Shown here one piece after another: positions 27,231 through 40,502 of a stretch of DNA of 64,000 nt (positions within the stretch are counted from its first letter, which is position 1; every line of letters begins with the position of its first letter). The notes beneath the pieces were generated by a model. That model worked only from the letters and a program-made list of their open reading frames with translations, searched no databases and was not told where the DNA came from. A program made the translations under genes and the position numbers. The DNA is taken from assembly GCF_021049265.1 (NCBI RefSeq), contig NZ_CP088018.1, positions 2,232,001 to 2,296,000 on the forward strand, given 5' to 3'. The DNA comes from Ruania suaedae. Its GTDB lineage: Bacteria > Actinomycetota > Actinomycetes > Actinomycetales > Beutenbergiaceae.

Positions 27231-27983
27231 TCACGTCATCCCGAAGAACAGCTGCGGCACACCCTCGATGTCGATGCGTCGCACCGAGATCTCGTACACC
27301 GGCTCCAGCACCTCCGGCACGAGCACCTCCGCCGGTGGCCCCGCCGCCACGATCTGCCCGCGCTGCAGCAGCGCCAGCTCGTCGCAGTACCGGGCCGCCA
27401 GGTTCAGATCGTGCAGCACCGTGATCGTGGTCAGCGCCAGCCCGTGCACGAGCGAGAGGATCTCGTGCTGGAAGCGCACGTCCAGGTGGTTGGTGGGCTC
27501 ATCCAGCAGCAGGTGACTCGACCCCTGCGCGAGCGCCCGCGCGATGAGCACCCGCTGACGCTCCCCGCCGGAGAGATCGTCCACGTGCCGGTGGGCCAGG
27601 TGGCTCACCCCGGCGCGCGCCATCGCCTCCTGCGCCGCCTCCTCGTCGGCCGGCCGGTAGCGGCTCCAGCCGGACAGCCGCGCCGAACGCCCCAGCAGCA
27701 CCGAGTCCCACGCCGTCAGCGGCAGCCCGCTCGGCTCCTCCTGCGCCACGACGGCGATGCGCTCGGACCGCTGCCGGGGGTTGAGGTCCCGGACCAGATC
27801 CTCGTCCACGGTCACCGTGCCCTCGCCGCTGATGGCGCCGAGGATGGCGCGCAGCATCGTCGACTTCCCGGACCCGTTCGGCCCGATCAGCCCGAGCGTG
27901 CGCCCGTCCGCAGCCACCAGATCAGCGGCCGCGACGGCGACCGTCCGGCCGTACCGGACGGTCAGCCGTTGCGTCCCGATCAC
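27231..27983 (-). CDS. ABC transporter ATP-binding protein, metal-chelate/heme type (FecE-like)
   Basis: A 250-residue ATPase. Walker A GPNGSGKST, signature LSGGERQ, Walker B HLLLDEPTNHLD and the switch His (VLHDLNLAARYCDEL) are intact. Length and sequence fit the FepC/BtuD/HmuV group that powers uptake of iron-siderophores, heme or cobalamin. Overlaps the binding-protein gene by 4 bases; last gene of the importer operon. Confidence 0.92.
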   Translation of the reverse strand: MIGTQRLTVRYGRTVAVAAADLVAADGRTLGLIGPNGSGKSTMLRAILGAISGEGTVTVDEDLVRDLNPRQRSERIAVVAQEEPSGLPLTAWDSVLLGRSARLSGWSRYRPADEEAAQEAMARAGVSHLAHRHVDDLSGGERQRVLIARALAQGSSHLLLDEPTNHLDVRFQHEILSLVHGLALTTITVLHDLNLAARYCDELALLQRGQIVAAGPPAEVLVPEVLEPVYEISVRRIDIEGVPQLFFGMT

Positions 27984-29014
27984 TGGTTCAGCGCACCCGT
28001 GCCCTCGAGCACGGCCTCCAGGCCGCGGACGGCGCCCGGGTCCGGGGCCAGGTCCGCCGCGGGCACGCCGATGATGCGGTCGGCCTGCACCGCAGCCATG
28101 TCCTCGACGCCGGGTTCGGTCATGAAGGTGGCCAGCGCCTCCTCGTAGCTCTCCCCGTACAGCCCGTAGGCGAGCACGAGGGTGTGCGGGTCGGCGTCGA
28201 GCAGCGTCTCGATGTTGGCCTCGAGGTAGACCGAGGGCTCCTCGCCGTAGACGTTGTCGAAACCGGCGCGAGTGAGCACGTCGTCGGCGATCCCCTGCCC
28301 GCCACGGGCGGACATCGTGGCGTCGGCGGAGAAGTAGTACACGACGGCGGCGTTGCGCCCCTCCTGCGTCTCACCCGCCGCCGCGGTCAGCTCCTCGAGG
28401 CTGCTGCGCAGCCCGTCGAGGTTCTCCTCGGCCTGCTCCTGGGTGTCGAAGACCTGCGCCAGGCGGGAGACGTCGTCGAAGATCGCCTCGAAGTCGGTCT
28501 TCTCGGTCAGCGCGGCGTCATGGCTGCACTCGCCGTCGATGACCACATTTGCCAGGCCCGCGGATTCGACGTCCTCGACGGCGGCGTTGAAGAGGCCGTA
28601 GCCGACGATGATGTCGGCCCCGGCGCCCACGATGACCTCGATGCTGGGGTCATAGGGGTCGAGGATCTCGGCATCGGTGGGCGGGGCGGTCAGCCCTGCG
28701 GGCAGCTCCGCGCCGAACTCCCCCGCCCTCGCCACGATCCGGTCCGAGGCACCGGCCGCATCGAGCAGCGCGACGGCGGAGGTTCCGATGGTCAGTACGC
28801 TCTCCGGCTCCTGCTCGACCTCGAGCTCCTCACCGCAGTTGTCGATCGTCAGCGGGTACTGCGTCGCACCGATGGAGGTAGCGCCTTCGGCGCTCGTCGA
28901 CTCACCACCCTCGGTGGAATCGGCCGACCCCGGCGAACAGGCGGCGAGCAGGGCGGCGGCGCCGACCACCCCGAGAGCGGTGACGCCGCGGCGGCGGAAC
29001 AGGGCATGGGACAT
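27980..29014 (-). CDS. Metal-chelate ABC transporter substrate-binding lipoprotein (FecB-like)
   Basis: A 344-residue class III binding protein. A basic start and hydrophobic stretch end in lipobox LLAAC; an acidic Ser/Glu linker follows. The periplasmic-binding fold shows ESVLTIGTSAVALLDAAGASDRIVAR, EVIVGAGADIIVGYGLF and the long connecting helix. It captures a metal chelate outside the cell. It lies 33 bp after the permease. Possible ligands are siderophore, heme, B12, or the modified peptide of the neighbouring cluster (inference). Confidence 0.9.
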   Translation of the reverse strand: MSHALFRRRGVTALGVVGAAALLAACSPGSADSTEGGESTSAEGATSIGATQYPLTIDNCGEELEVEQEPESVLTIGTSAVALLDAAGASDRIVARAGEFGAELPAGLTAPPTDAEILDPYDPSIEVIVGAGADIIVGYGLFNAAVEDVESAGLANVVIDGECSHDAALTEKTDFEAIFDDVSRLAQVFDTQEQAEENLDGLRSSLEELTAAAGETQEGRNAAVVYYFSADATMSARGGQGIADDVLTRAGFDNVYGEEPSVYLEANIETLLDADPHTLVLAYGLYGESYEEALATFMTEPGVEDMAAVQADRIIGVPAADLAPDPGAVRGLEAVLEGTGALNQ

Positions 29015-29047
29015 GGCGAATCTCCAGATTCTTCTTCGAGCGGACCC

Positions 29048-30139
29048 TCAGCGGGCGAGGGACCGGCGGACGAGCGCGATCAACAACGGTGTGCCGATCA
29101 ACGCGGTGAGGATGCCGAGCGGCAGCTCACGGGGGGCAAAGGCGATACGGGCGATCGCATCGGCGCTGACCAGCAGCAACGCGCCGAGGAGCGCAGAGAC
29201 GGGCAGCACGATGCGATGGCTGCCACCGACGAGCCGGCGAGCGATGTGCGGGACCACGAGCCCGACGAAGCCGATCAAGCCGGAGACCGACACGGCCACC
29301 GCCACCACCAGGCTGACCACGATCACCGCGAGCGCCCGGAACCGTGCGGGATCGGTGCCCAGCGCCAGCGCGGTGTCGTCGCCGATCGCGAGGGCGTCCA
29401 GCCGGCGGGCCCAGGCGATGAAGATCGCGGCCGCGACCACCACGGCGACCACCGCCAGGGGGACCGAGGCCCAGCGCGACTGCGCCAGGGAACCCAGCAT
29501 CCAGAACATCACCGCGCGGGCGCCGTCCCGGGACTCGCTCGCGAAGACCAGGAAGTTCGTCAGCGCCGTCAGCGCGAACCCGACCGCGATCCCGGCGAAC
29601 ACCAGCCGGGAGGTGATGAGCCTGCCCCCGATCCGGGCCACCGAGAGCACCAGCGCGATGGCACCGACCGCTCCGACGAAGGCGCTGCCGGTCAGGGCGA
29701 GCACTCCGCCACCGATCCCGAACAGGATGCTCGCCGCGGCGCCGACCGAGGCGCCGGATGAGATGCCCAGCAGGTAGGGGTCGGCCAGCGGGTTGCGCAC
29801 GAGGGCTTGGATGACCACCCCGGCCAGCGCGAGCGAGGCTCCGACGACTGCGCCGAGGATCACTCGGGGCAGGCGGATCAGCCAGACGATCGAGTCGTCG
29901 GTGGCGGCCACGGATCCCGGATCTGCCAGCCCGAGGTGCCCGAGTACGACCTCGGCCACCACCGAGGGTGCGATGGGAACCGGGCCGATCCCGACCGCGA
30001 GGATGCAGACGAGAGCGACCCCCGTCAGCAGCGCGAGGATCAGCAGCCCGCGGCGGCGGCGTGTCGCGCCTGCTGCCGCCACCAACGGGGCGTCGGTGGC
30101 GGTGCGGGGGTGGCCATGACCGCGATCCGTCGTGTACAA
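29048..30139 (-). CDS. Metal-chelate ABC transporter permease (FecCD/BtuC type)
   Basis: A 363-residue membrane protein with about ten hydrophobic segments. Family marks are WLIRLPRVILGAVVGASLALAG (core RLPRVILGAVVG), NPLADPYLLGISSGASVGA and GFVGLVVPHIARRLVG. TTG at 30139 is taken as start, with AGGGAT upstream; a GTG at codon 20 is the alternative. It is divergent from the RiPP exporter genes, only 53 bp apart. Confidence 0.88.
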   Translation of the reverse strand: MYTTDRGHGHPRTATDAPLVAAAGATRRRRGLLILALLTGVALVCILAVGIGPVPIAPSVVAEVVLGHLGLADPGSVAATDDSIVWLIRLPRVILGAVVGASLALAGVVIQALVRNPLADPYLLGISSGASVGAAASILFGIGGGVLALTGSAFVGAVGAIALVLSVARIGGRLITSRLVFAGIAVGFALTALTNFLVFASESRDGARAVMFWMLGSLAQSRWASVPLAVVAVVVAAAIFIAWARRLDALAIGDDTALALGTDPARFRALAVIVVSLVVAVAVSVSGLIGFVGLVVPHIARRLVGGSHRIVLPVSALLGALLLVSADAIARIAFAPRELPLGILTALIGTPLLIALVRRSLAR

Positions 30140-30156
30140 CTGTGCCCATCCCTACT

Positions 30157-30171
30157 TGCGAACGATTCTCA
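30157..30171. promoter_or_regulatory. Fur/Zur-like box in divergent promoter of importer and RiPP operons
   Basis: TGCGAACGATTCTCA (its complement is TGAGAATCGTTCGCA) is a 7-1-7 arrangement close to the Fur-family consensus; 5 of 7 arm positions pair. It lies in the 53-bp region shared by the metal-chelate importer and the exporter/RiPP operon, so one metal-sensing regulator could control both. Confidence 0.4.
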
Positions 30172-30192
30172 CTCTCACGATAGCAGGCACCC

Positions 30193-31908
30193 GTGATCCA
30201 CCTCCGCCTCCTCCGCCTGACGCGTTCGGTCCGCGGCGTCCAGGCCGGTCAGGCGCTGTGCGCCGCGGTCGGGCTGGTGCTCAGCGCGCTGGCGATCACG
30301 CAGGCGATCGCGATGTCGCGTCTGTTCGCCGGGATCCTGGAGGGGCAGGGCCTGGTCGACCTGGCCGCACCCTTCACCCTGCTCGCCGCCGCCCTGGTGC
30401 TGCGCCCGGCGGCGACCGCGATCCGTGAGCTCAGTGCGCATGCGGTGGCCGGTCGGATGAAGCGGGGCCTGCGCACCACCATGCTCGACGCGGACGCGGC
30501 GCTCGGCCCGTTCGCCCGGCCGGCCGAGAGCACGGGCAGCCGGCACTCCCTGCTCATCGACGGCGTCGAGAACCTCGAGGCCTACGTCACCCGCTACGTC
30601 CCGCAGGTGATCGTGACCGCCGTGACGGCCGCCGTCACCGTGGGCATCCTGATCGCGATCGATCCGGTGGTCGGGCTGGCGGCGGGCGTGGCGGCGGCGA
30701 TCGTGCCGCTGCTGCCGCGGCTGTGGGACCGCGCCCTGCGCTCACGCGGGGAGGACCACTGGAGCTCCTACGCCGGCATGCACGCCGACGTCGTGGATGC
30801 AATGCGTGGGATGGAGACCCTCAAGCTGCTGGGGGCCGCCGGTCGCCGCAGGGACCAGCTGATCGCTGCCAGTGCCGGGTTGCTGCGCTCCACCCTGCGC
30901 CAGCTGCGCCTGTCCTTGGTGGAGTCCGGGCTGACCGGCTTCCTGCTGGTGGCCGGTCCGGCCCTCGTGCTGGCGGTGGGGGTGCTGCGCGTCTCGGCCG
31001 GTGATCTCGCCGCCCCGGCCCTGTTCACTCTCACCCTCATCGGCTTCGAGGTGTTCCGCCCGTTCAAGGACCTCGCGAACCACTGGCATGCCGGATACCT
31101 GGGCGTCTCCGCCGGCTCACAGCTGCTCGCCCGGCTCGCCGAGTCCGAGAGCGCCGGCCCTGCCCCTCACGACGGGCACGCCGGGCGTGCTGGTGCGGGC
31201 ATGGCGGTGGTGCTGGAGCGCGTGAGCGCCGGATACCCCGGCGCCGACCGCCCGGCCGTGACCGACCTCAGCCTCGCCCTGCCGCATGGCTCGGTGACGG
31301 CGATCGTGGGCCCGTCCGGGGCTGGCAAGTCGACCGTAGCCAACCTCGTGCTCGGACTGCTCACGCCGCAGGCGGGCTCGGTGCACCTCGCACCGTCGCA
31401 GGACGCTCCCCCGGTCACCCTCGTCTCCCAGGATCCGGTGCTCTTCGCCGGCACGATCCGCGAGAACCTCACCATCGTGGCTCCCGCGGCCACCGATCCG
31501 GAGCTGATCGAGGCCCTCACCCGCGCCGAGGCTCCCGAGCTGGCCGAAGGCGCAGGGCTCGGTGCGCAGGTGGGTGAGGGCGGCTCGCTGCTCTCCGGCG
31601 GCCAGCGCGCCCGCGTCGCGATCGCCCGGGCGCTCCTGCGCCGCTCGCCCGTGCTGGTGCTCGACGAGGCCTCTGCGGCCCTGGACGCCGAGCGCGAACG
31701 GGCACTGCTGACCACATTGCGCGCGGGACCGGACCGGCCGACGCTGGTGATCATCGCCCACCGCCTCGCGGCGATCGCCGCCGTCGACCGGATCCTGGTG
31801 CTGGAGGAGGGGCGGGTGGTCGAGCAGGGCCGCTACGACGAGCTCGTCGCCGCCGGGGGGCCGTTCGCGCGCCTGCACGCGGCCCAGGCGGAGAGGATCC
31901 CCGCATGA
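30193..31908 (+). CDS. ABC half-exporter (CydD-like), first subunit
   Basis: A 571-residue fusion of a six-helix membrane domain (residues ~1-310) and an ATPase domain: Walker A VGPSGAGKST, signature LLSGGQRARVAIARALL, Walker B VLVLDEASAALD. It resembles CydD. Start is GTG at 30193. Overlaps the second subunit by 4 bases (ATGA), so a heterodimer is expected. No C39 peptidase domain is attached. In this context its likely cargo is the modified peptide at 33722, but thiol export as in CydDC cannot be excluded. Confidence 0.85.
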   Translation: MIHLRLLRLTRSVRGVQAGQALCAAVGLVLSALAITQAIAMSRLFAGILEGQGLVDLAAPFTLLAAALVLRPAATAIRELSAHAVAGRMKRGLRTTMLDADAALGPFARPAESTGSRHSLLIDGVENLEAYVTRYVPQVIVTAVTAAVTVGILIAIDPVVGLAAGVAAAIVPLLPRLWDRALRSRGEDHWSSYAGMHADVVDAMRGMETLKLLGAAGRRRDQLIAASAGLLRSTLRQLRLSLVESGLTGFLLVAGPALVLAVGVLRVSAGDLAAPALFTLTLIGFEVFRPFKDLANHWHAGYLGVSAGSQLLARLAESESAGPAPHDGHAGRAGAGMAVVLERVSAGYPGADRPAVTDLSLALPHGSVTAIVGPSGAGKSTVANLVLGLLTPQAGSVHLAPSQDAPPVTLVSQDPVLFAGTIRENLTIVAPAATDPELIEALTRAEAPELAEGAGLGAQVGEGGSLLSGGQRARVAIARALLRRSPVLVLDEASAALDAERERALLTTLRAGPDRPTLVIIAHRLAAIAAVDRILVLEEGRVVEQGRYDELVAAGGPFARLHAAQAERIPA

Positions 31909-33716
31909 GCGCCCGCGGGCTGCTCGGCCCGGTCGTGCGGTTGCTCGGCGAGGTCGGGGCGCAGCGGTCGCTGTTCTGGCGCTCGACCGCCGCGATGACC
32001 GGGTTCCAGGCCGCCACGGCCGCCGCCGCGGGCCTGAGCACCGCCGTCGCCTCGCTGGTGACGTCCGGCTCGACCTCGATGGTCGCTCTGCTGCTGACCG
32101 CGCTGGCGGCTGCGGTGGTGGCCGTCGCCGTGCTGACCTGGGTGGAGTCCTGGCTCAGCCACGTCCTCGCCTACCGGGTGATCGACGGGTTGCGGGTGCG
32201 CGTCTACGACGCCGTCGAGCAGATCGTGCCCGCCCGCTCGGGCCGCCGGCGCGCCGGTGAGGTCGCCGGTACCGCGATGAACGACGTGGAGGTGCTCGAG
32301 TGGTTCTACGCCCACACCCTCGGTGCCGGCCTGAACGCGCTGCTCTCACCCACCCTCGTCTCGATCGCACTGGTGGCGATGGTCGGGCCGCGCGCACTGA
32401 TCGTCCCGGCCGGGGTGGCCCTCCTCCTCGCGATCCCCTGGCTGCTCGCCGGTCTGCAACAGCGCCAGGGCATCGCCATCCGCAGCGAGCTCGGCCGACT
32501 GCAGGCGCTCTCGTTCGAGGGCGCGCAGGCCCGGCGGGAGCTCGCGGCACTCGACCTGACCGGCCACCACCGTGCCCAGGTGCTGCGCGGCACCGATGCC
32601 GTGCAGCGGGCCAGGCGCCGCTTCGCGCTCCGGGCAGCGGGTGAGTCCGCGCTCGCCGATCTGGTGGTGGCGGCCACGAGCCTGCTGTTCCTGGTCTCCC
32701 TCGTGCAGGCCGCTGTGGCCGGATCACTGGACCCGGTGCTGATTCCGCCGGCGATGGTCCTGGTCGCCGCCGCGATCGCGCCGGCCGCAGGAGCCTTCGC
32801 GATGGTGCAGCGGCTGGGCGAGATGTCCGCGGCTGCCCGGCGGGTGCTGGAGCTGATCGACGAGGGCGAGCGCGTGCGCACCTCCGCCCCCGCCGCCAGC
32901 ACCGCGACCGCCGCCCCGGCGCGATCCTCTACCGCGGGCCCCCGCGGCCACGTGCGACTCGAGGCGGTGCGCTTCGCCTACGGCGAGGGCCCGCCCGTGC
33001 TGGACGGGCTCGACCTGGATCTCCCGCCGGGCGGGACGCTTGCCCTGGTGGGGGCCTCCGGTGCGGGCAAGTCGACCCTCGCCCGGCTGCTGACCCGGCT
33101 GTGGGATCCCCAGCAGGGCACCATCACCCTCGACGGCGTCCGGATCGACGCGCTGGAGCCGGATGAGCTGCGCCGACGGGTGGCGCTCGTGGCCCAGCAC
33201 CCCTTCGTCTTCCGCGGCACGGTCCGCAGCAACCTGCTGCTGGCTGCCCCGGAGGCCACCGAGGAGGACCTGTGGGCGGCCCTGACCACCGCGGGCCTGG
33301 CCGAGACGGTGACCGCCTGGCCCGGCGGGCTGGACACCGGCGTCGGCGATCGCGGGACCACGATGTCCGGGGGCCAGCGGCAGCGGCTGTCGATCGCCCA
33401 GGCGATGCTGCGCGACCCCTGCGTACTCGTGCTCGACGAGGCCTCCGCCCACCTGGACGCCGTCGGTGAGCAGGACCTGGCCGACGCCGTCGCACAGCTC
33501 GGCCTGACCACGCTGGTGATCGCCCACCGGATCTCGACGATCCGCCGCGCCGACCGGGTGGCGCTGCTGGCAGGCGGGCGCATCGCCGCCGCGGGCAGCC
33601 ACCGGGGGCTGCTGCAGACCTGCCCCGAGTACCGGCGCCTGCTCGCCCAGGCAGGCGCCCCTGAACCCGAACCGGCCGGCCCGGCCGGTTCGTCCCGAGA
33701 AACAGCAAGGAGGTGA
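31905..33716 (+). CDS. ABC half-exporter (CydC-like), second subunit
   Basis: A 603-residue protein with an N-terminal six-helix domain and a C-terminal ATPase: GASGAGKST, TMSGGQRQRLSIAQAMLRD, VLVLDEASAHLD, LVIAHRISTIRRAD. Pairs with 30193-31908. The Shine-Dalgarno AAGGAGG of the precursor gene lies inside its last codons, and its stop is 5 bases from the precursor ATG. This tight coupling ties the exporter to the peptide. Confidence 0.88.
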   Translation: MSARGLLGPVVRLLGEVGAQRSLFWRSTAAMTGFQAATAAAAGLSTAVASLVTSGSTSMVALLLTALAAAVVAVAVLTWVESWLSHVLAYRVIDGLRVRVYDAVEQIVPARSGRRRAGEVAGTAMNDVEVLEWFYAHTLGAGLNALLSPTLVSIALVAMVGPRALIVPAGVALLLAIPWLLAGLQQRQGIAIRSELGRLQALSFEGAQARRELAALDLTGHHRAQVLRGTDAVQRARRRFALRAAGESALADLVVAATSLLFLVSLVQAAVAGSLDPVLIPPAMVLVAAAIAPAAGAFAMVQRLGEMSAAARRVLELIDEGERVRTSAPAASTATAAPARSSTAGPRGHVRLEAVRFAYGEGPPVLDGLDLDLPPGGTLALVGASGAGKSTLARLLTRLWDPQQGTITLDGVRIDALEPDELRRRVALVAQHPFVFRGTVRSNLLLAAPEATEEDLWAALTTAGLAETVTAWPGGLDTGVGDRGTTMSGGQRQRLSIAQAMLRDPCVLVLDEASAHLDAVGEQDLADAVAQLGLTTLVIAHRISTIRRADRVALLAGGRIAAAGSHRGLLQTCPEYRRLLAQAGAPEPEPAGPAGSSRETARR

Positions 33717-33721
33717 AACCC

Positions 33722-33832
33722 ATGGAGAGCATCACCCTCGTCGAGGTCGCCACGGAGCGTTCGGAGGACCAGATCCTGGCCCCCAACGCGAACAACCACG
33801 GCCACGTCTCGACCGCGTTCGCCTGGTCCTGA
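33722..33832 (+). CDS. Putative RiPP precursor peptide (azol(in)e-type, YcaO-associated)
   Basis: A 36-residue peptide, too short for most gene callers. The ATG is preceded by the consensus AAGGAGG. The N-terminal half (MESITLVEVATERSEDQ) is acidic and reads as a leader; the C-terminal half (ILAPNANNHGHVSTAFAWS) as the core, with Ser30, Thr31 and Ser36 as possible cyclisation sites and an N-H-G-H segment (25-28). There is no Cys, so only oxazoline- or methyloxazoline-type rings would be possible. It sits between the exporter pair and the fused cyclodehydratase, the classic place of a precursor gene, and a hairpin follows. Product structure and activity are unknown. Confidence 0.8.
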   Translation: MESITLVEVATERSEDQILAPNANNHGHVSTAFAWS

Positions 33833-33841
33833 TCGCCGTAC

Positions 33842-33874
33842 GCGGTTGCCCCCGGCCCAGCCGGGGGCAACCGC
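33842..33874. terminator. Hairpin between precursor and modification genes, partial terminator
   Basis: A perfect 15-bp stem (33842-33856 with 33860-33874) with a 3-base loop CCA, starting 10 bases after the precursor stop. In RiPP operons such hairpins let most transcripts end after the precursor, so that peptide exceeds enzyme. No T-run follows. Confidence 0.75.
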
Positions 33875-33911
33875 CCCACCCCCGCCACCCCTGTCGAAAG
33901 GCCCGCTCCCC

Positions 33912-36146
33912 GTGTCGACCCCCTCGCTCACCCTCGCTCCGCGCGTGGAGGTCCGCCCACTGACGGCGAACCGCACCCTGGTCACCACCCCCACCAGCGC
34001 CTCGTTCACGCTGGACGTCCCCGCCGCCCGCGTGTTGCAGATCCTCGATGCCTGGGCCACCGGACAGGCCAGCCCCGCTCTTCCCGAGGGCTGGCAGCAG
34101 GCCACCAGCGTGCTGCGCGAGGTGCTGGAGCGCGACGGCGCCCTCACCGCGGCCACTCCGCCCGGAGCCGACCTGGGCGAGGCGGCGCCGACCCTCGACG
34201 ACGGCGACGGCTCCCAGGCGCGCCCGGGAGACCTGATGGTGACCGGCGATCCGGAGATCGTCGCCGCCCTGCAGACCCTCGCCGGCTCCGTGTGGCAGGG
34301 GCCCGCCGCGCCGCGGATCCGCGCCGTCCCCGCCGACGACTGGCAGCGAGTGGTCCACCGCGCCTTCCGCACCGGCGAGCTGCTCGTGTACGCGATCCGC
34401 GGCGGCGACGACGCCACGCTGGTGGCGCTGGACCGCCTCTGCGCCGACGCCCGCACCCCCTGGGTCGCCCTCGAGGTGACCCGCTCCGTGGTCTGGGTGG
34501 GCCCGTTCGTCACTCCGGGCGTGGGCGCAAGCTACGAGGACCTCGCCGACCGGCGCACGGCCGCCGCCTACGACGCCCAGGCCCACCGGGCCCTGCGCAC
34601 CCCCGCCGTCGGGGGCGACGCCGGCCACCCGCCCCGCCACCTGGCCGAGGCGCTAAGCCAGGCGCTCGAGATCCTGACCACGCATCAGGGCGAGGGCGAC
34701 GCCGTCTGGGAGATCGCCACCGACGCCACCACCCGCAGCCACCCGGTGCTCCCGCTACCGGGGCGAGTGCTCAGCGCCTCACGCGAGCACACGATCGCGG
34801 ACCTGATCGACCCCCTCACCGGGCTGGTCCAGCGCACCCGGGACGTCACCCACCACCCGAGCATCCCCCCGGCCCTGGCGACCGCCCAGAGCGACGTGTG
34901 CACCATGCGCCGGGTCTCGCGCTGGGCCAACAACACCTCCTGCCAGGGCGCGGCCTTCGGTGACCCGGACCAGGCGCGGGCGAGCGCCGTGGGCGAGGCG
35001 GCCGAACGGTACTGCGGCAACCTCCTCGACACCCTGCCGGTGACCGTCGGCAGCTATGCCGGACTGCGCCGTCGTGGGATGCGCGTGCTCGACCCGGCCG
35101 CCCTGGTGCTGTACTCACCCGAGCAGTACGCCACCCCCGGCTTCCCGTTCGCGGAACTGACGCCCGACCTGGAGGTGCACTGGGTCCCCGGCCGGTCGCT
35201 GACCACCGGCGAGGAGCTGCTGGTGCCGGCCAGTATGGTCTACGTCAACTGGTTCACCGCCGGCTACTCGGCCGCCCCGGTGACCAACTTCTGCCCGTTC
35301 GCCGGCATCGCCGCGGGCCCGACCATGGACTACGCGATCACCTCCGCGCTGGAGGAGATCATCGAGCGGCACGTGACGATGGTGTGGTGGCTGAACGGGC
35401 ACCCCTTCGACGCCACCGAGCCCGGCGAGCTGGCGCGGGTGTGGGACGAGGTCGGCCCCGAGCACGGCCAGCGGCCCAGTCTGATCATGCTCGACAACGA
35501 GTTCGGGGTGCCGGTGGCCGCCGGGGTGCTGCACAACGACCTCGAGACCCTCGTCAACGTCGGGTTCGCCTGTCGCGACACCCCCGAGGCCGCCGCCGCG
35601 AAGGCCTGGACCGAGGCGTGCACCCTGCAGGAGGGCAGCCGCGATCTGCTGCGCGCCGATGGCGCCCACTGGGATGCGATGAGCCGCGGGGAGCTGAACA
35701 GCCGCTCGTTCAAGCCCTGGCGCGCGGACCGGCGCTACCTCGACTCCTACCGGGCCGACATGCGCGACTGCGACGACCTGATGGTCCAGCAACAGGTGCA
35801 CCTGGATCCGCGTGCCGTGGCACGCGTGGCGCCGCTGCTCGAACGGCCGGTGACCCGCACCCTCGCCGACACCCCGTCCCTGCCCGGGCGCACCCCCGCC
35901 GCCTACCGGTCCGCGCTCGAGCAGGCCGGGCACGAGGTGATCGTGGTGGACATCACCTCCCCAGACGTCGCCTCCACCGGCATGCGGGTGGTGCGGGCCA
36001 TCGTGCCGGGCACTGTGGGCAACGCACCCGCCGCGTTCCCGTTCCTGGGCGGGCGGCGAGTGCAGGACCTGGCGGTCGAGCTCGGGTGGCGCCGCCACCG
36101 GCTGGCCGAGTCGGACCTGAACCACTTCCCGATCCCGCACGCATGA
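33912..36146 (+). CDS. Fused RiPP cyclodehydratase: leader-binding/ThiF-like domain plus YcaO domain
   Basis: A 744-residue protein, the size of fused cyclodehydratases such as TruD/PatD. Residues ~1-85 resemble a leader-recognition region, and ~100-240 an E1/ThiF-like domain (DLMVTGDPEIVAALQTL, VVWVGPFVTPGVGASYEDL). The YcaO half (~330-744) has the ATP/Mg motifs: SAVGEAAER (Sx3ExxER, residues ~358-366), ALEEIIERH (~478-486) and AKAWTEAC (~562). It ends FPIPHA, reminiscent of the Pro-rich YcaO C-terminus. The zinc cysteines usual after GPF..P are replaced by Ser and Glu/Asp. GTG at 33912 is the start. It should activate Ser/Thr of the peptide for ring formation using ATP. Confidence 0.85.
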   Translation: MSTPSLTLAPRVEVRPLTANRTLVTTPTSASFTLDVPAARVLQILDAWATGQASPALPEGWQQATSVLREVLERDGALTAATPPGADLGEAAPTLDDGDGSQARPGDLMVTGDPEIVAALQTLAGSVWQGPAAPRIRAVPADDWQRVVHRAFRTGELLVYAIRGGDDATLVALDRLCADARTPWVALEVTRSVVWVGPFVTPGVGASYEDLADRRTAAAYDAQAHRALRTPAVGGDAGHPPRHLAEALSQALEILTTHQGEGDAVWEIATDATTRSHPVLPLPGRVLSASREHTIADLIDPLTGLVQRTRDVTHHPSIPPALATAQSDVCTMRRVSRWANNTSCQGAAFGDPDQARASAVGEAAERYCGNLLDTLPVTVGSYAGLRRRGMRVLDPAALVLYSPEQYATPGFPFAELTPDLEVHWVPGRSLTTGEELLVPASMVYVNWFTAGYSAAPVTNFCPFAGIAAGPTMDYAITSALEEIIERHVTMVWWLNGHPFDATEPGELARVWDEVGPEHGQRPSLIMLDNEFGVPVAAGVLHNDLETLVNVGFACRDTPEAAAAKAWTEACTLQEGSRDLLRADGAHWDAMSRGELNSRSFKPWRADRRYLDSYRADMRDCDDLMVQQQVHLDPRAVARVAPLLERPVTRTLADTPSLPGRTPAAYRSALEQAGHEVIVVDITSPDVASTGMRVVRAIVPGTVGNAPAAFPFLGGRRVQDLAVELGWRRHRLAESDLNHFPIPHA

Positions 36147-37921
36147 GGCTGGCGGTCCATGCCCTCGGTGAGGACCGCGTCCTCGCCTGCCGTGACGACG
36201 GCCGCCGGTGGGTGCTGGGGGTCGGCGCCGGCGAGCTCGGCCAGGCGGCCGCCCGCACGGCGCTGACCACACTGGCCGAGGAGGGGCCGGCCCTGCCCGC
36301 TCCGCCGCTGCACCGCGACCATGCGGTCGCCAGCCTGACCGAGCTCGAGCACTGGGCCGCCGCACTGGACGGCCCGGGTGGGGCCGGCGCCGGTGACCAG
36401 GTGGTCCGGTGGCCCTTCGCCGGATCGACCTACCGGATGTGCCTGCGCCCGGGCCGGGCCGGGGAGCTCGTCCGCGCCGCGTCACAGGCGCTGCGCGCGC
36501 GCATCCCCGAGCCCGAGCACGCGCGGGCGCTGGCCGGCCGCGCCGTCCTGGTCCTCACCGCCCCGGAACCGGCGCCGGGGAGCCCCGGCCCGGCTCCCGC
36601 ACCCGGCATGCTCGAGCGGTGGACGGGCCAGGAGTGGCAGCCGCACGCGCTGGTGCCCCCGGCCGTCGTCGATCCGGTCACCGGGCTGGTGCACCGGGTG
36701 GTGCGCCGCCGCGACCCCCACGCCCCCGGTGCGTTCGTGCACCTGCACGCCGAGCTGCCGCATCTGAGCAGCGTGGACCCGCGCTGGCAGCCCGATCCGC
36801 TCGCACCGGCCGGCACCCTCGAGGCCGCCGACGGCGAACGCGTGGCCGTCCTGTCCGGGCTCGCCCACCTGTGCGGGGCCTATCAAGGTCAGGGCGAGCG
36901 GCGGCAGGCGAGTACCCGCGAGCTGATCAATGGCGGTGCGCGGGTGCTCACCGTGGGCCAGTGGCGCCCGCACGACCCGGCACTGCACACGCAGCCCGGC
37001 TTCCCGTTCCGCCCCCATGAGCAGGACCTGAGCACCTGGTGGCTGCGCGGGCGGGAGCACCCCCGCGACGGCGCCCCCTCCTCCCCGTGCTGGGTGCCGC
37101 TCAGCCTGGTGCACGCGGGCTACCTGGCCAGCGCGCTGGCGGGCCTGCCCGCCACCAACTCCCACAACCTGGTCGGGCTCCAGGCCGGCCGAAACGCACG
37201 CGAGGCGCTGGACCGGGCCGCCGCCGAGCTGCTGGCCCAGGACGCGGTGGCACGGTGGTGGTACGACGGTGGACCATCGCTGCCGGAGGTGCCACTACCC
37301 GCGCCGGTGGCCGCACGGGACAGCATGATCGCGCTGCGGATGCTGGCCGTGCCCTCGGCGACCGGTCTCCCGGTGCGGCTGGCGGTCGCCGACGACGGGG
37401 ATGTGCTCGCCCTGGGATATGCCGGCGCAGCCGGAGCCGAGGAGGCGGCAAGCGGGGCGGTGTGCGCAGCCTTGATCCAGCACGCCTCAGCGCGCGATCT
37501 GACCCGGCGGGACAGCCTGATCCGGCGCGGACCCGAACTCGGCAACGGTGGGGTGGCCGGGTTGGCTCCCTACGATTCGGGGCGCCGGTACGCGAGCGCG
37601 TTCGCCGGCCGGCACCTGATGGTCGATCCCATGTGCCACCTGCAGCGCGGGCTCGACCCGGTGGTGGCGGACCGGGTGCGGGTCCGGACCCGGCCGGCAC
37701 CTGGCGCCGGGCCGGAACCCGAGGCCGCGGCGCCGCCCGCCCCGATGCCGGCGCTGCTGTCCCTCTCGCCCCGGGTGGTGAGCGTGGACGTGACCACCGA
37801 CCGGGTGCGCGCCGCCGGATTCTGCGCCCACCGGCTGCTGGCCACCGGGCTGCGACGGCTCACCGTGGCGGCCTTCCCCCAGCACGTGACCGACGCCCGG
37901 GAGCCCTATCCCGGCTGGTGA
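36143..37921 (+). CDS. Second, degenerate YcaO-family protein of the RiPP operon
   Basis: A 592-residue protein that aligns by eye with the YcaO half of its neighbour: QPGFPF with TPGFPF, VPLSLVHAGY with VPASMVYVNW, WWYDGG with WWLNGH, and VDVTTDRVRAAGFCAHRLLA with VDITSPDVASTGMRVVRAIV. The ATP motifs are lost or weakened: QASTRELINGG (residues ~255-265) stands where Sx3ExxER is expected, and AAAELLAQD where ALEEIIERH is expected. It is therefore a likely pseudo-enzyme or scaffolding partner. ATGA overlap with the cyclodehydratase gene means coupled translation. The N-terminal ~150 residues are not recognised. Confidence 0.75.
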   Translation: MRLAVHALGEDRVLACRDDGRRWVLGVGAGELGQAAARTALTTLAEEGPALPAPPLHRDHAVASLTELEHWAAALDGPGGAGAGDQVVRWPFAGSTYRMCLRPGRAGELVRAASQALRARIPEPEHARALAGRAVLVLTAPEPAPGSPGPAPAPGMLERWTGQEWQPHALVPPAVVDPVTGLVHRVVRRRDPHAPGAFVHLHAELPHLSSVDPRWQPDPLAPAGTLEAADGERVAVLSGLAHLCGAYQGQGERRQASTRELINGGARVLTVGQWRPHDPALHTQPGFPFRPHEQDLSTWWLRGREHPRDGAPSSPCWVPLSLVHAGYLASALAGLPATNSHNLVGLQAGRNAREALDRAAAELLAQDAVARWWYDGGPSLPEVPLPAPVAARDSMIALRMLAVPSATGLPVRLAVADDGDVLALGYAGAAGAEEAASGAVCAALIQHASARDLTRRDSLIRRGPELGNGGVAGLAPYDSGRRYASAFAGRHLMVDPMCHLQRGLDPVVADRVRVRTRPAPGAGPEPEAAAPPAPMPALLSLSPRVVSVDVTTDRVRAAGFCAHRLLATGLRRLTVAAFPQHVTDAREPYPGW

Positions 37922-38082: not shown

Positions 38083-39459
38083 ATGACCATCCTGACGCTC
38101 TTGCTGGGCGTCCTGGTGATCCTCGCGATCATCGCCGCGAACGGCTACTTCGTGGCGCAGGAGTTCGCGTACATGTCCGTGGACCGGTCCCGCCTCGGGG
38201 CACGCGCCGAGGCCGGCGACACCGCTGCGAGCCGGGCCCTGAGCATCACCCGGCGCACCTCGTTCATGCTCTCTGGCGCCCAGCTGGGGATCACCGTCAC
38301 CGGTCTGCTGATCGGCTACGTGGCCGAGCCGCTGGTGGGTAACTCCCTCGGCGAGTTGCTCGGCGGGGTCGGAATCCCGGACGCCGTCGGGATCTCCATC
38401 GGCACCATCGGTGCGCTGGCGATCTCCACGGTGGTGCAGATGATCTTCGGTGAGCTGTTCCCGAAGAACCTGGCGATCGCCAACCCCGAGCCGCTGGCGC
38501 TCGGCCTGGCCCGGTCCACGACGATCTATCTGGCCGTCTTCGGCTGGCTGATCACCGTTTTCGACCACGCCGCCAACGGCCTGCTGCGAATCTTCCGGAT
38601 CGAGCCGGTGCACGATCTGGACTCCTCGGCCACCCCCGATGACCTGGAGCACATCGTGGCCGACTCCCGCGAGAGCGGCCACCTCCCGGAGGAGCTGTCG
38701 ATGCTGCTGGACCGCATCCTCGACTTCCCCGATCAGGACGTCGAGCACGCGATGATCCCGCGCTCACGGGTAGCTGCGGTCCCCCACCACTTCACCCTCG
38801 CCGACGTGCGCGAGCGGATGGCCACCGAGCACACCCGCTATCCGGTGGTCGACGATCACGACCAGGCGATCGGCGTGGTCCAGCTCGGCGACCTGCTCGC
38901 GACCGACCTGGCCGAGGACGCTCCCGTGACCGACCTGATGCGCCCGCCGGTGGTGGTCCCCACCGCGATGGCCCTGCCCGACGCGCTCACCGAGCTCACC
39001 GGCTCCAAGAACGAGCTCGCCTGCGTGATCGACGAGTACGGCGGTTTCACCGGGATCCTGACGGTGGAGGACATGGCCGAGGAGCTCATCGGCGAGGTCA
39101 CCGACGAGCACGATCACGAGCAGCCCGCCACGATCCGCACCGAGGGTGAGGACTGCTGGGTGCTGGACGGGGACGTGCACGTGGACGAGGTCGAGCGCAC
39201 GATCGGTCACGATCTGCCGCGCGGGGACTACGAGACGATCGCCGGCCTGCTGCTGGACGTGCACGGCCAGTTGATCGAGACCGGTGAGTCCGTGGAGGTG
39301 CTGCTGCCCATCGATCCCGCCGACCTCGCCGAGGACGAACCCGTCCGCAACGCCCTGACCGCGGAGGTGCTCGAGGTGGAACGCCACGTGCCGGCCACGG
39401 TGCGCCTGCGACTGCACGAGTGCGAACCCGCCGAGGTCGAGGAAGAGGCCGGCTCATGA
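38083..39459 (+). CDS. CNNM/CorC-family membrane protein with CBS pair and CorC domain (HlyC/CorC)
   Basis: A 458-residue membrane protein: DUF21/CNNM domain with helices at the N-terminus (TLLLGVLVILAIIAANGYFVAQEF), LSGAQLGITVTGLLIGY, FGELFPKNLAIANPE; two CBS domains (MIPRSRVAAVP, CVIDEYGGFTGILTVEDMAEELIGE); and a C-terminal CorC/HlyC transporter-associated domain (CWVLDGDVHVDEVERTIG). Such proteins transport or control Mg2+/Co2+. Translationally coupled to the next, related gene (ATGA). It begins 162 bp after the RiPP operon and is probably separate. Confidence 0.92.
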   Translation: MTILTLLLGVLVILAIIAANGYFVAQEFAYMSVDRSRLGARAEAGDTAASRALSITRRTSFMLSGAQLGITVTGLLIGYVAEPLVGNSLGELLGGVGIPDAVGISIGTIGALAISTVVQMIFGELFPKNLAIANPEPLALGLARSTTIYLAVFGWLITVFDHAANGLLRIFRIEPVHDLDSSATPDDLEHIVADSRESGHLPEELSMLLDRILDFPDQDVEHAMIPRSRVAAVPHHFTLADVRERMATEHTRYPVVDDHDQAIGVVQLGDLLATDLAEDAPVTDLMRPPVVVPTAMALPDALTELTGSKNELACVIDEYGGFTGILTVEDMAEELIGEVTDEHDHEQPATIRTEGEDCWVLDGDVHVDEVERTIGHDLPRGDYETIAGLLLDVHGQLIETGESVEVLLPIDPADLAEDEPVRNALTAEVLEVERHVPATVRLRLHECEPAEVEEEAGS

Positions 39460-40502
39460 CCGAGAACCCCGTATTCGTCACCGTGGCGACGATCGCGATC
39501 ATCGCCCTGAGTGCGCTGTTCGTGATCGTGGAGTTCTCGCTGCTCGGTGCCCGCCGCCACCGGCTGGAGGAGTCCGCCGCCACCAGCCGCTCGGCCCGGG
39601 CCGCGCTGCGTTCGGTGAACGAGCTGACGATGATGCTCGCCGGCGCCCAGCTGGGCATCACCGCCTGCACCTTCGCCCTCGGTGCCATCAGCAAGCCGGC
39701 GGTCCACTACTGGTTGTTGCCGCTGTTCGAGGCCTCGGGCATGCCGCTGTGGACGGCCGACGCCATCGCCTTCGTGCTCTCGCTGCTGGTGGTGACCTTC
39801 CTGCACCTCGTGGTCGGGGAGATGGCTCCGAAGTCGTGGGCGATCGCGCACCCCGAGCGCTCCGCCTCGATCATCGCGATCCCGGCGCGGGCTTTCATCT
39901 GGGTCTTCCGCCCGCTGCTGGTGTGGATCAACGGCATCGCGAACAAGCTGGTGGCCGCCACCGGCGTCGAACCGGTGGAGCAGGCGGCCGTCGGCGGGCA
40001 GGACGCCGCCACCATCCGCCACCTGGTCGAGCACTCGGCCGCGGTGGGCTCGCTCGAGCCCTCCTTCCGCAGTCAGATCGCCCGGGCGATCGACCTGGAG
40101 TCACTCGAGGTCATCGCGCTGATCAAGCCCGGCGCGATCCCGACGGCCGTGCCGCCCGAGGCGACCGTGGGTGATGTCCGGGAGGCCTCGGTACGTACCG
40201 GGCACCTGCGGATCCTGGTCTACACCGAGCACGCGGGTACCCCGCGCGTGGTGCACGTGCGGGACACCCTGATGGAGTCCCAGGACCGCCCCGCAGCCGA
40301 GCTGGCGCGTGAGCCCCTGACGCTGGCCACCACCACCCCGGTGCACGAGGCGCTCGCGCGGATGCGCAGCACCAGCGAGCAGTTGGCCGTGGTGATGGAC
40401 GGCGACCGGTTCGCCGGCGTGGTCACGATCACCGACATCCTGCGCCGGGTGCTGCCCGGCGGCGCCGAGCCGACCTCGACGCCGGCCCCGGCTCCGGCGT
40501 GA
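39456..40502 (+). CDS. CNNM-family membrane protein with CBS pair, no CorC domain
   Basis: A 348-residue paralogue of the preceding protein: AIIALSALFVIVEFSLLGARRH, LAGAQLGITACTFALGAISKPA, GEMAPKSWAIAHPERSA, then two CBS domains ending FAGVVTITDILRRVLPG. The C-terminal CorC domain present in its partner is missing. The ATG at 39456 overlaps the upstream stop. The pair may form a heteromeric transporter. Confidence 0.9.
   Translation: MTENPVFVTVATIAIIALSALFVIVEFSLLGARRHRLEESAATSRSARAALRSVNELTMMLAGAQLGITACTFALGAISKPAVHYWLLPLFEASGMPLWTADAIAFVLSLLVVTFLHLVVGEMAPKSWAIAHPERSASIIAIPARAFIWVFRPLLVWINGIANKLVAATGVEPVEQAAVGGQDAATIRHLVEHSAAVGSLEPSFRSQIARAIDLESLEVIALIKPGAIPTAVPPEATVGDVREASVRTGHLRILVYTEHAGTPRVVHVRDTLMESQDRPAAELAREPLTLATTTPVHEALARMRSTSEQLAVVMDGDRFAGVVTITDILRRVLPGGAEPTSTPAPAPA

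What the first reader, a model, noticed from the sequence alone, without database searches (positions are those of the whole stretch)
30193..37921. Putative new RiPP biosynthetic operon with a 36-residue, Cys-free precursor
Seen: an ABC exporter pair, a 36-residue ORF with a consensus Shine-Dalgarno, a hairpin, a 744-residue fused leader-binding/YcaO protein and a second YcaO-like protein, all overlapping or closely spaced. Known: YcaO enzymes with fused N-terminal domains make azoline rings on precursor peptides. Inferred: the core ILAPNANNHGHVSTAFAWS is modified at Ser30, Thr31 or Ser36. The core does not match any azole-peptide family I know (microcin B17, plantazolicin, cyanobactin, goadsporin, thiopeptide).
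Basis: partly seen in the sequence, partly recalled or inferred. Interest (0 to 1): 0.92.

Follow-up and report, generated by a model that had tools for sequence, protein, structure and literature searches.

The report
Zinc-starvation-controlled modified-peptide gene cassette
A conserved bacterial gene cassette makes, exports and probably takes back a small His/Asn-rich modified peptide, and its control switch is of the kind that responds to zinc starvation, so it is most likely a ribosomally made zinc scavenger rather than the azole antibiotic first suggested.

Summary
Window 30193-37921 holds an ABC exporter pair, a 36-residue ORF, a hairpin, a 744-residue YcaO fusion and a second YcaO-like protein. 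The ORF is a real RiPP precursor: it lies in the same place in 15 of 15 related loci that hold sequence upstream, with mostly synonymous change between close pairs. The cassette is larger than reported: a divergent siderophore-type importer (27231-30139) is conserved in the same 15 loci. The proposed chemistry is weak: no Ser/Thr/Cys of the core is invariant; Pro21, His26, Phe33 and Trp35 are. The second YcaO has lost most catalytic glutamates. The main new result is control: a Zur-type box (30157-30171) sits in the divergent promoter. In this genome the same box also lies at zinc-transporter, AztD and cysteine-free ribosomal-protein genes. A motif trained only on this family marks the promoter of streptamidine-type precursors in 14 of 19 loci. 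Best reading: a Zur-repressed RiPP zincophore family, related to or parallel with streptamidine and perhaps overlapping the uncharacterised 'mobilisins'. Against it: no metal binding was detected for streptamidine, and two distant members carry an iron-type (DtxR-like) box instead.

The parts
27231..27983 (-). ATPase of FecBCD-type metal-chelate importer
   Evidence: Pfam ABC_tran 100.8 bits; conserved at the same place in 15 of 15 related loci
27980..29014 (-). Substrate-binding lipoprotein (Peripla_BP_2) with lipobox LLAAC
   Evidence: PF01497 66.5 bits; N-terminus printed; best PDB match by sequence is a protein deposited as Fe3+-hydroxamate periplasmic component; 15 of 15 loci
29048..30139 (-). 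FecCD-type permease; exact start uncertain
   Evidence: PF01032 296 bits; 15 of 15 loci
30157..30171 (.). Zur-type operator TGCGAACGATTCTCA in the divergent promoter
   Evidence: Best PWM hit in the whole 64 kb window with its own box not in the training set, 21.4 bits, next 13.2; same kind of box at three zinc loci of the genome
30193..31908 (+). ABC exporter half A (CydD-like, below equivalog cut-off)
31905..33716 (+). ABC exporter half B (CydC/MsbA-like, below cut-off)
33707..33716 (+). Shine-Dalgarno AAGGAGGTGA of the precursor gene
   Evidence: sequence
33722..33832 (+). RiPP precursor, 36 residues; leader about 1-18 or 1-20, core contains PNANNHGHVSTAFAWS (cut site not known)
   Evidence: 15 of 15 loci; alignment A3, invariant P21 H26 F33 W35 in 18 rows; synonymous change
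33842..33874 (+). Intercistronic GC-rich hairpin between precursor and fusion gene
   Evidence: a stem after the precursor stop in the 18 sequences folded; energy z-scores only -0.5 to -3.3
33912..36146 (+). YcaO fusion (CD): N-terminal domain that looks like an RRE by secondary structure only, E1-like domain, YcaO domain, C-terminal FPxPHA
36143..37921 (+). Second YcaO homologue, predicted catalytically dead, C-terminus PYPGW

Best explanation
It is a Zur-repressed RiPP metallophore (zincophore) system. SHOWN by sequence: a 36-residue precursor, a YcaO fusion, a degenerate YcaO partner, a heterodimeric ABC exporter and a divergent siderophore-type importer recur as one unit with a Zur-type operator between the two operons. 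INFERRED: when zinc is scarce, Zur leaves the box at 30157-30171 and the operon is transcribed. The N-terminal RRE-like domain of the fusion binds the ITLVEV leader strand, and the YcaO domain uses ATP to modify the backbone of the core (azoline, or amidine as in streptamidine; not decided). The dead YcaO acts as scaffold. The leader is removed by a protease outside the cassette. The peptide leaves through the exporter, binds Zn2+ through His26, His28 and neighbouring Asn/His, and the complex is taken up by the importer. Two distant members seem to be switched to iron control.
For: Importer, exporter pair, precursor and CD together in 15 of 15 loci; a homologue of the second YcaO after CD in 18 of 18 loci. 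Box, leave-one-out PWM: the best hit of the whole window and of 12 of 15 whole loci is the one in the divergent promoter; it is second in L001, third in L014, not found in L009. It fits the published 15-bp Zur motif tGaNNatSatNNtCa of Streptomyces coelicolor apart from single positions (PMC5472717 passages). Own genome: a strict pattern, written after seeing the boxes, gives 2 matches, control 0: this cassette, and the 5' end of AztA/AztB-like genes (below cut-off) followed by a FUR-family gene. Relaxed matches lie before aztD-aztC-like (AztD 470 bits, cut-off 400) and between an MRF-like gene and rpmB-rpmG-rpsN-rpmJ, the last three without cysteine. Six simulated genomes hold on average 0.33 hits of 20 bits or more, against 6 among the 29 places scored here. 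Cross-test: 14 of 19 streptamidine-type loci have the box within 200 bp of the precursor, shuffles 1 of 5700; C-minus rpsN loci 10 of 21, C-plus rpsN 0 of 9; other YcaO loci 0 of 17. The last 20 residues hold 2-4 His in 18 of 18.
Against: [quoted passage not shown] L080 and L081 carry a DtxR-like box (consensus recalled), not a Zur box, before the precursor. The window core has only two His. The importer is of an iron-siderophore/B12 type; no zinc-chelate uptake by it is shown. Two slightly higher-scoring boxes of the genome (1945345, 2705395) are not by known zinc genes. Five of 19 streptamidine-type loci lack the box at the precursor, and 11 of 21 C-minus rpsN loci lack a hit of 18 bits in the 3.3 kb held. 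No binding or expression data.
Confidence: 0.6

Rival explanations
1. A linear azole peptide antibiotic: the fusion makes oxazolines at Ser30/Thr31/Ser36, the exporter secretes it, the importer is immunity or coincidence.
For: Fusion protein resembles LynD/TruD/MusD; Thr31 is S/T in 16 of 18; PxP C-terminus.
Against: No S/T/C position invariant; no FMN dehydrogenase among the cassette ORFs; siderophore-type importer in 15 of 15 and Zur-type operator are unexpected for an antibiotic; the core is nearly constant across genera, unlike what I would expect of warfare peptides (inference).
Confidence: 0.1
2. A metallophore, but mainly for iron or copper; the Fur-family box is read by another metal sensor.
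For: DtxR-like box in L080 and L081; importer binding protein nearest to a Fe3+-hydroxamate-type entry; two FUR-family genes in the genome.
Against: The same kind of box lies at aztD-aztC-like, AztAB-like and cysteine-free ribosomal genes in the same genome; G099 has Zur-type boxes at its C-minus rpsN locus (L160) but a DtxR-like box at its RiPP cluster (L081), so the two signals look distinct.
Confidence: 0.14
3. A Zur-controlled signal or antibacterial peptide made under zinc starvation; the importer recycles or senses the peptide rather than a metal chelate.
For: No metal binding was detected for streptamidine and its role is unknown; its authors mention signalling or development (PMC8442711).
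Against: Invariant His26 and near-invariant His28 and Asn22; importer type; precursors of related clusters also carry His or Cys.
Confidence: 0.12

Closest known systems
Streptamidine-type RiPP clusters (ami; Russell et al. 2021, PMC8442711)
   Same: By the paper: YcaO protein, a partner predicted RRE/E1-like, FecBCDE-type importer, two ABC exporters, short His-bearing core. New here: the same Zur-type box before the precursor in 14 of 19 loci. Precursors fall in the same register LAPNANNH / LAHLSATH.
   Different: CD fused instead of separate AmiB and AmiD; no AmiC hydrolase or AmiE dehydrogenase in the cassette; no ALV motif; YcaO domains form a separate clade (SH-aLRT 99, quick tree without bootstrap); precursor similarity itself is not significant (hhalign probability 0.2%). 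That study mined stand-alone YcaOs only.
'Mobilisin' TOMM group (Cox et al. 2015, PMC4603692, section 21)
   Same: Actinobacteria, fused cyclodehydratase, a nearby short peptide with few Cys/Ser/Thr, no known product
   Different: Described with B, C and D proteins, no B protein among the cassette ORFs here; its sequences are in supplements that could not be read, so identity is open
Cyanobactin and related fused heterocyclases LynD, TruD, MusD
   Different: Unrelated precursor and gene context (recalled)
Coelibactin and other Zur-controlled metallophores (PMC5472717 and PMC6103462, passages)
   Same: Zur-repressed biosynthesis of a chelator in actinobacteria
   Different: Those named there (coelibactin, ethylenediamine-disuccinate) are not RiPPs (recalled)
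Methanobactin (recalled)
   Same: Ribosomally made metallophore
   Different: Copper, made by MbnBC, no YcaO

Membership tests
YcaO-modified RiPP (TOMM/LAP in the wide sense) | YcaO enzyme with intact ATP/Mg glutamate motifs (motifs recalled) | tested here: met
   E362/E365, E482/E485, E568 and Q573 invariant in 18 of 18; TIGR03604 over cut-off
YcaO-modified RiPP (TOMM/LAP in the wide sense) | E1-like partner domain fused or adjacent | tested here: met
YcaO-modified RiPP (TOMM/LAP in the wide sense) | RRE (leader-binding) domain | tested here: inconclusive
   Residues 13-74 model as three strands and helices, but this part is not covered by the VIA rows
YcaO-modified RiPP (TOMM/LAP in the wide sense) | Conserved short precursor beside the enzyme | tested here: met
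   15 of 15 loci with upstream sequence
Azoline-forming LAP | Conserved Cys/Ser/Thr modification sites | tested here: inconclusive
   No invariant S/T/C; position 31 S/T in 16 of 18, position 23 S/C in 14 of 18
Streptamidine-type | Precursor motif A or B with ALV | tested here: not met
   No ALV in the window precursor or in any of the 18 rows of A3
Streptamidine-type | AmiC hydrolase and AmiE dehydrogenase (the paper says many of its own clusters lack amiE) | tested here: not met
   No such family in the cassette ORFs tested from 27231 to 37921; an S9 peptidase gene does lie beside the distant cluster L081
Streptamidine-type | FecBCD importer and two ABC exporters with a YcaO | tested here: met
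   15 of 15 loci
Mobilisin | D protein in the Mobiluncus/Rhodococcus similarity group | not testable with these tools
   No named Mobiluncus sequence at hand; supplements closed
Mobilisin | B protein in cluster | tested here: not met
   None among the cassette ORFs
Zur regulon | Zur box in the promoter, shared with zinc genes of the same genome | tested here: met
Zur regulon | Binding by Zur and zinc-dependent repression | not testable with these tools
   needs protein and RNA work
Zincophore | Secreted product binds zinc and feeds zinc uptake | not testable with these tools
   needs chemistry and growth tests

The most novel reading that the evidence does not exclude
This fused-CD family and the widespread streptamidine-type clusters (reported in over 230 species) are one functional class: ribosomal zincophores made by YcaO enzymes under Zur, with one branch re-tuned to iron by exchanging the Zur box for a DtxR box and the core LAPNxNHHGH for VPHCHHA.
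Probability: 0.45. Interest if true: 0.9.

Novelty: new variant of a known kind. Interest (0 to 1): 0.76.

Why it matters
Streptamidine-type peptides were the most abundant precursor family in a survey of stand-alone actinobacterial YcaO genes, and their role is stated to be unknown (PMC8442711). A shared zinc-starvation operator, learned from a separate family and then found on theirs, gives a specific, cheap test: grow without zinc and look. If right, it adds a ribosomal route to zinc acquisition beside opine and non-ribosomal zincophores. It would also fit the report that no antibacterial activity was found.

Tried and rejected
Precursor core strings (6 terms) were searched in the paper library: no paper. 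YcaO with Brachybacterium: none. YcaO, zincophore and RiPP, two of three: 20 shown of 112, none of those shown holds zincophore. YcaO with Zur: 4 papers, titles on E. coli promoters (2), ribosomal-protein modification and modelling, not opened. RiPP, Zur, zincophore, Zur box, two of four: 25 shown of 160, none of those shown holds RiPP. YcaO, Zur, zinc, metallophore, three of four: 20 shown of 75, none with YcaO. 'Streptamidine': 12 papers, of which I opened only PMC8442711. 'Mobilisin' and kin as whole words: 5 papers, by title only Cox 2015 uses it for this group. A first 'mobilisin' search by word start was wasted on 'mobilising'. So the absence of a YcaO-Zur link in print rests on listings only.

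I tested whether our precursors and streptamidine precursors are homologous by profile: same register but probability 0.2%, so not claimed. The intercistronic hairpin is present in all 18 folded, but its energy is not strongly beyond shuffles, so I claim only its presence. No PWM hit of 12 bits or more was found in L099 or L100. Of 19 streptamidine-type loci 5 lack a hit of 18 bits at the precursor: L101 13.7, L135 15.0, L132 and L136 have a strong one elsewhere, L140 none. L139 was dropped from that count because no precursor was found there, and L105 because it repeats L140. Importers of the streptamidine-type loci were examined only in L101-L105, not in L125-L140. L009 was left out of the PWM because its box was unclear. 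A2 leaves out L009, L010, L014 and L017, whose second-YcaO starts or contigs were uncertain. The box at 2011246 overlaps the longest reading of the ABC gene; I take its start to be 8-17 bases further on.
Full report
Observation. The ORFs from 30193 to 37921 overlap or lie close together.

Relatives. One scan of genome contigs with the fusion protein found 18 loci. They come from Brachybacterium, Isoptericola, Salinibacterium, Glycomyces, Oerskovia, Aeromicrobium, Cellulomonas (2), Pseudoclavibacter, Mobilicoccus (2 loci), Actinomyces, Microbacterium (3), Cellulosimicrobium, Sediminivirga and Micropruina. Three of the 18 (L010, L017, L018) begin inside the fusion gene. All 15 others hold the precursor and, in the same order and strands, the importer trio and both exporters. 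A second-YcaO homologue follows the fusion in 18 of 18. The cassette is rare: 12 of 396 genomes of the order match the fusion profile at E <= 1e-60, the window's own included; only 5 of the 12 match over its full length. In the phylum sample it is 3 of 396 at E <= 1e-90, again with the window's own. None of the 7 other same-genus genomes listed matches. This patchiness suggests horizontal transfer (inference).

Precursor. Position 22 is 16 N and 2 H; position 28 is H in 16 of 18; position 25 is N or H in all. S/T/C is found at position 23 in 14, 30 in 10, 31 in 16 and 36 in 9 of 18. Between close pairs most codon changes are synonymous (window/L002 8 synonymous, 0 other; window/L001 8 and 3).

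Control. Between the divergent operons 14 of 15 loci and the window show a 15-bp palindrome like TGATAAYSATTMTCA; L009 is unclear. In leave-one-out scoring it is the best hit of the entire 64-kb window and of 12 of 15 whole loci, second in L001, third in L014, not found in L009. The published S. coelicolor Zur motif is tGaNNatSatNNtCa (PMC5472717, passages). In the window's genome a strict pattern, written after seeing the boxes, occurs twice (control 0). One match is this promoter; the other lies at the 5' end of AztA/AztB-like ABC genes (below cut-off) followed by a FUR-family gene. Relaxed matches flank a zinc locus: one before aztD (470 bits, cut-off 400) and an aztC-like gene, one between an MRF-like GTPase gene (below cut-off) and rpmB, rpmG, rpsN and type B rpmJ, the last three without cysteine. 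By PWM, among the 29 places scored, two sites that I cannot explain rank first (23.0, 22.9). The cassette (21.7) and the three zinc sites (20.6, 20.6, 20.4) follow, then nothing above 15.7. Six simulated genomes give 0.33 hits of 20 or more on average.

Independent test. More distant hits proved to be streptamidine-type clusters: L101-L105 have ...LAHLSATHSNALVENPFD-like precursors, stand-alone YcaO and exporters; FecBCD-type importer homologues are complete in L101, L102 and L104 and partial in L103 and L105. With a streptamidine-type YcaO as query, 17 of 394 genomes of the class matched. The PWM, trained only on the fused-CD family, has a hit of 18 bits or more within 200 bp upstream of the precursor in 14 of 19 loci, at -80 to -103. 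The same loci hold 6 other hits in 218,554 bp, and shuffled upstream windows give 1 of 5700. As yardsticks, 10 of 21 C-minus rpsN loci have a hit in the 3.3 kb held, C-plus rpsN 0 of 9, and other YcaO loci 0 of 17. The streptamidine paper, of which I saw section 5 in two of three parts, section 12 and found passages, does not contain the word Zur in its main text and calls the role unknown. I found no paper in the library's listings that joins YcaO RiPPs and Zur control (limits in Tried and rejected).

Against. The same paper detected no metal binding by streptamidine and no phenotype under metal starvation. L080 and L081 have DtxR-like palindromes (consensus recalled) before the precursor instead, while G099, the source of L081, has Zur-type boxes at its C-minus rpsN locus. 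I read this as a switch of metal, with the core changing to VPHCHHAxxTxTFAWA-like forms, but two genomes are few. Joint zinc and iron control of one metallophore-like promoter region is described in Corynebacterium diphtheriae (PMC6711530, passages), so such a switch is not far-fetched. Precursor homology to streptamidine is not significant, and the fused YcaO domains form their own clade with L098 as sister, apart from the streptamidine clade (quick tree, long branches flagged).

Conclusion. RiPP: near certain. Zur control: likely (about 0.85). Zincophore: best single explanation (0.6). Chemistry: open, azoline or amidine. Kind: new variant of YcaO RiPPs, possibly the unexamined mobilisins.

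Noticed in passing
   Followed up: partly
L001 16450 / L097 1134: The Brachybacterium contig has a second FecBCD-type importer with its own Zur-like box of 27 bits.
   Followed up: no
L082, L023, L046 (G112): Decayed copy of the cassette: fusion gene matched in two frames and a short precursor-like ORF with a LAPNGNHH stretch but no F.W end.
   Followed up: partly
L010 and L013: Mobilicoccus massiliensis carries two copies of the fusion gene on one contig, one cut by the contig start.
   Followed up: no
L098, L099, L100: Bridging clusters: precursor-like ORFs ending ALAPNSNHHSH..FTWKF, VALHSSNHNSPIALSAWK and VALCSNNHAVVRASAFAWDD near YcaO genes; L100 has two YcaO matches.
   Followed up: partly
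window 38083-40502: Two CNNM/CBS (CorC-like) genes follow the cassette; no match in the 18 loci.
   Followed up: yes
L014 12114 and 14605: Two further Zur-like boxes of 19-21 bits near the cassette.
   Followed up: no
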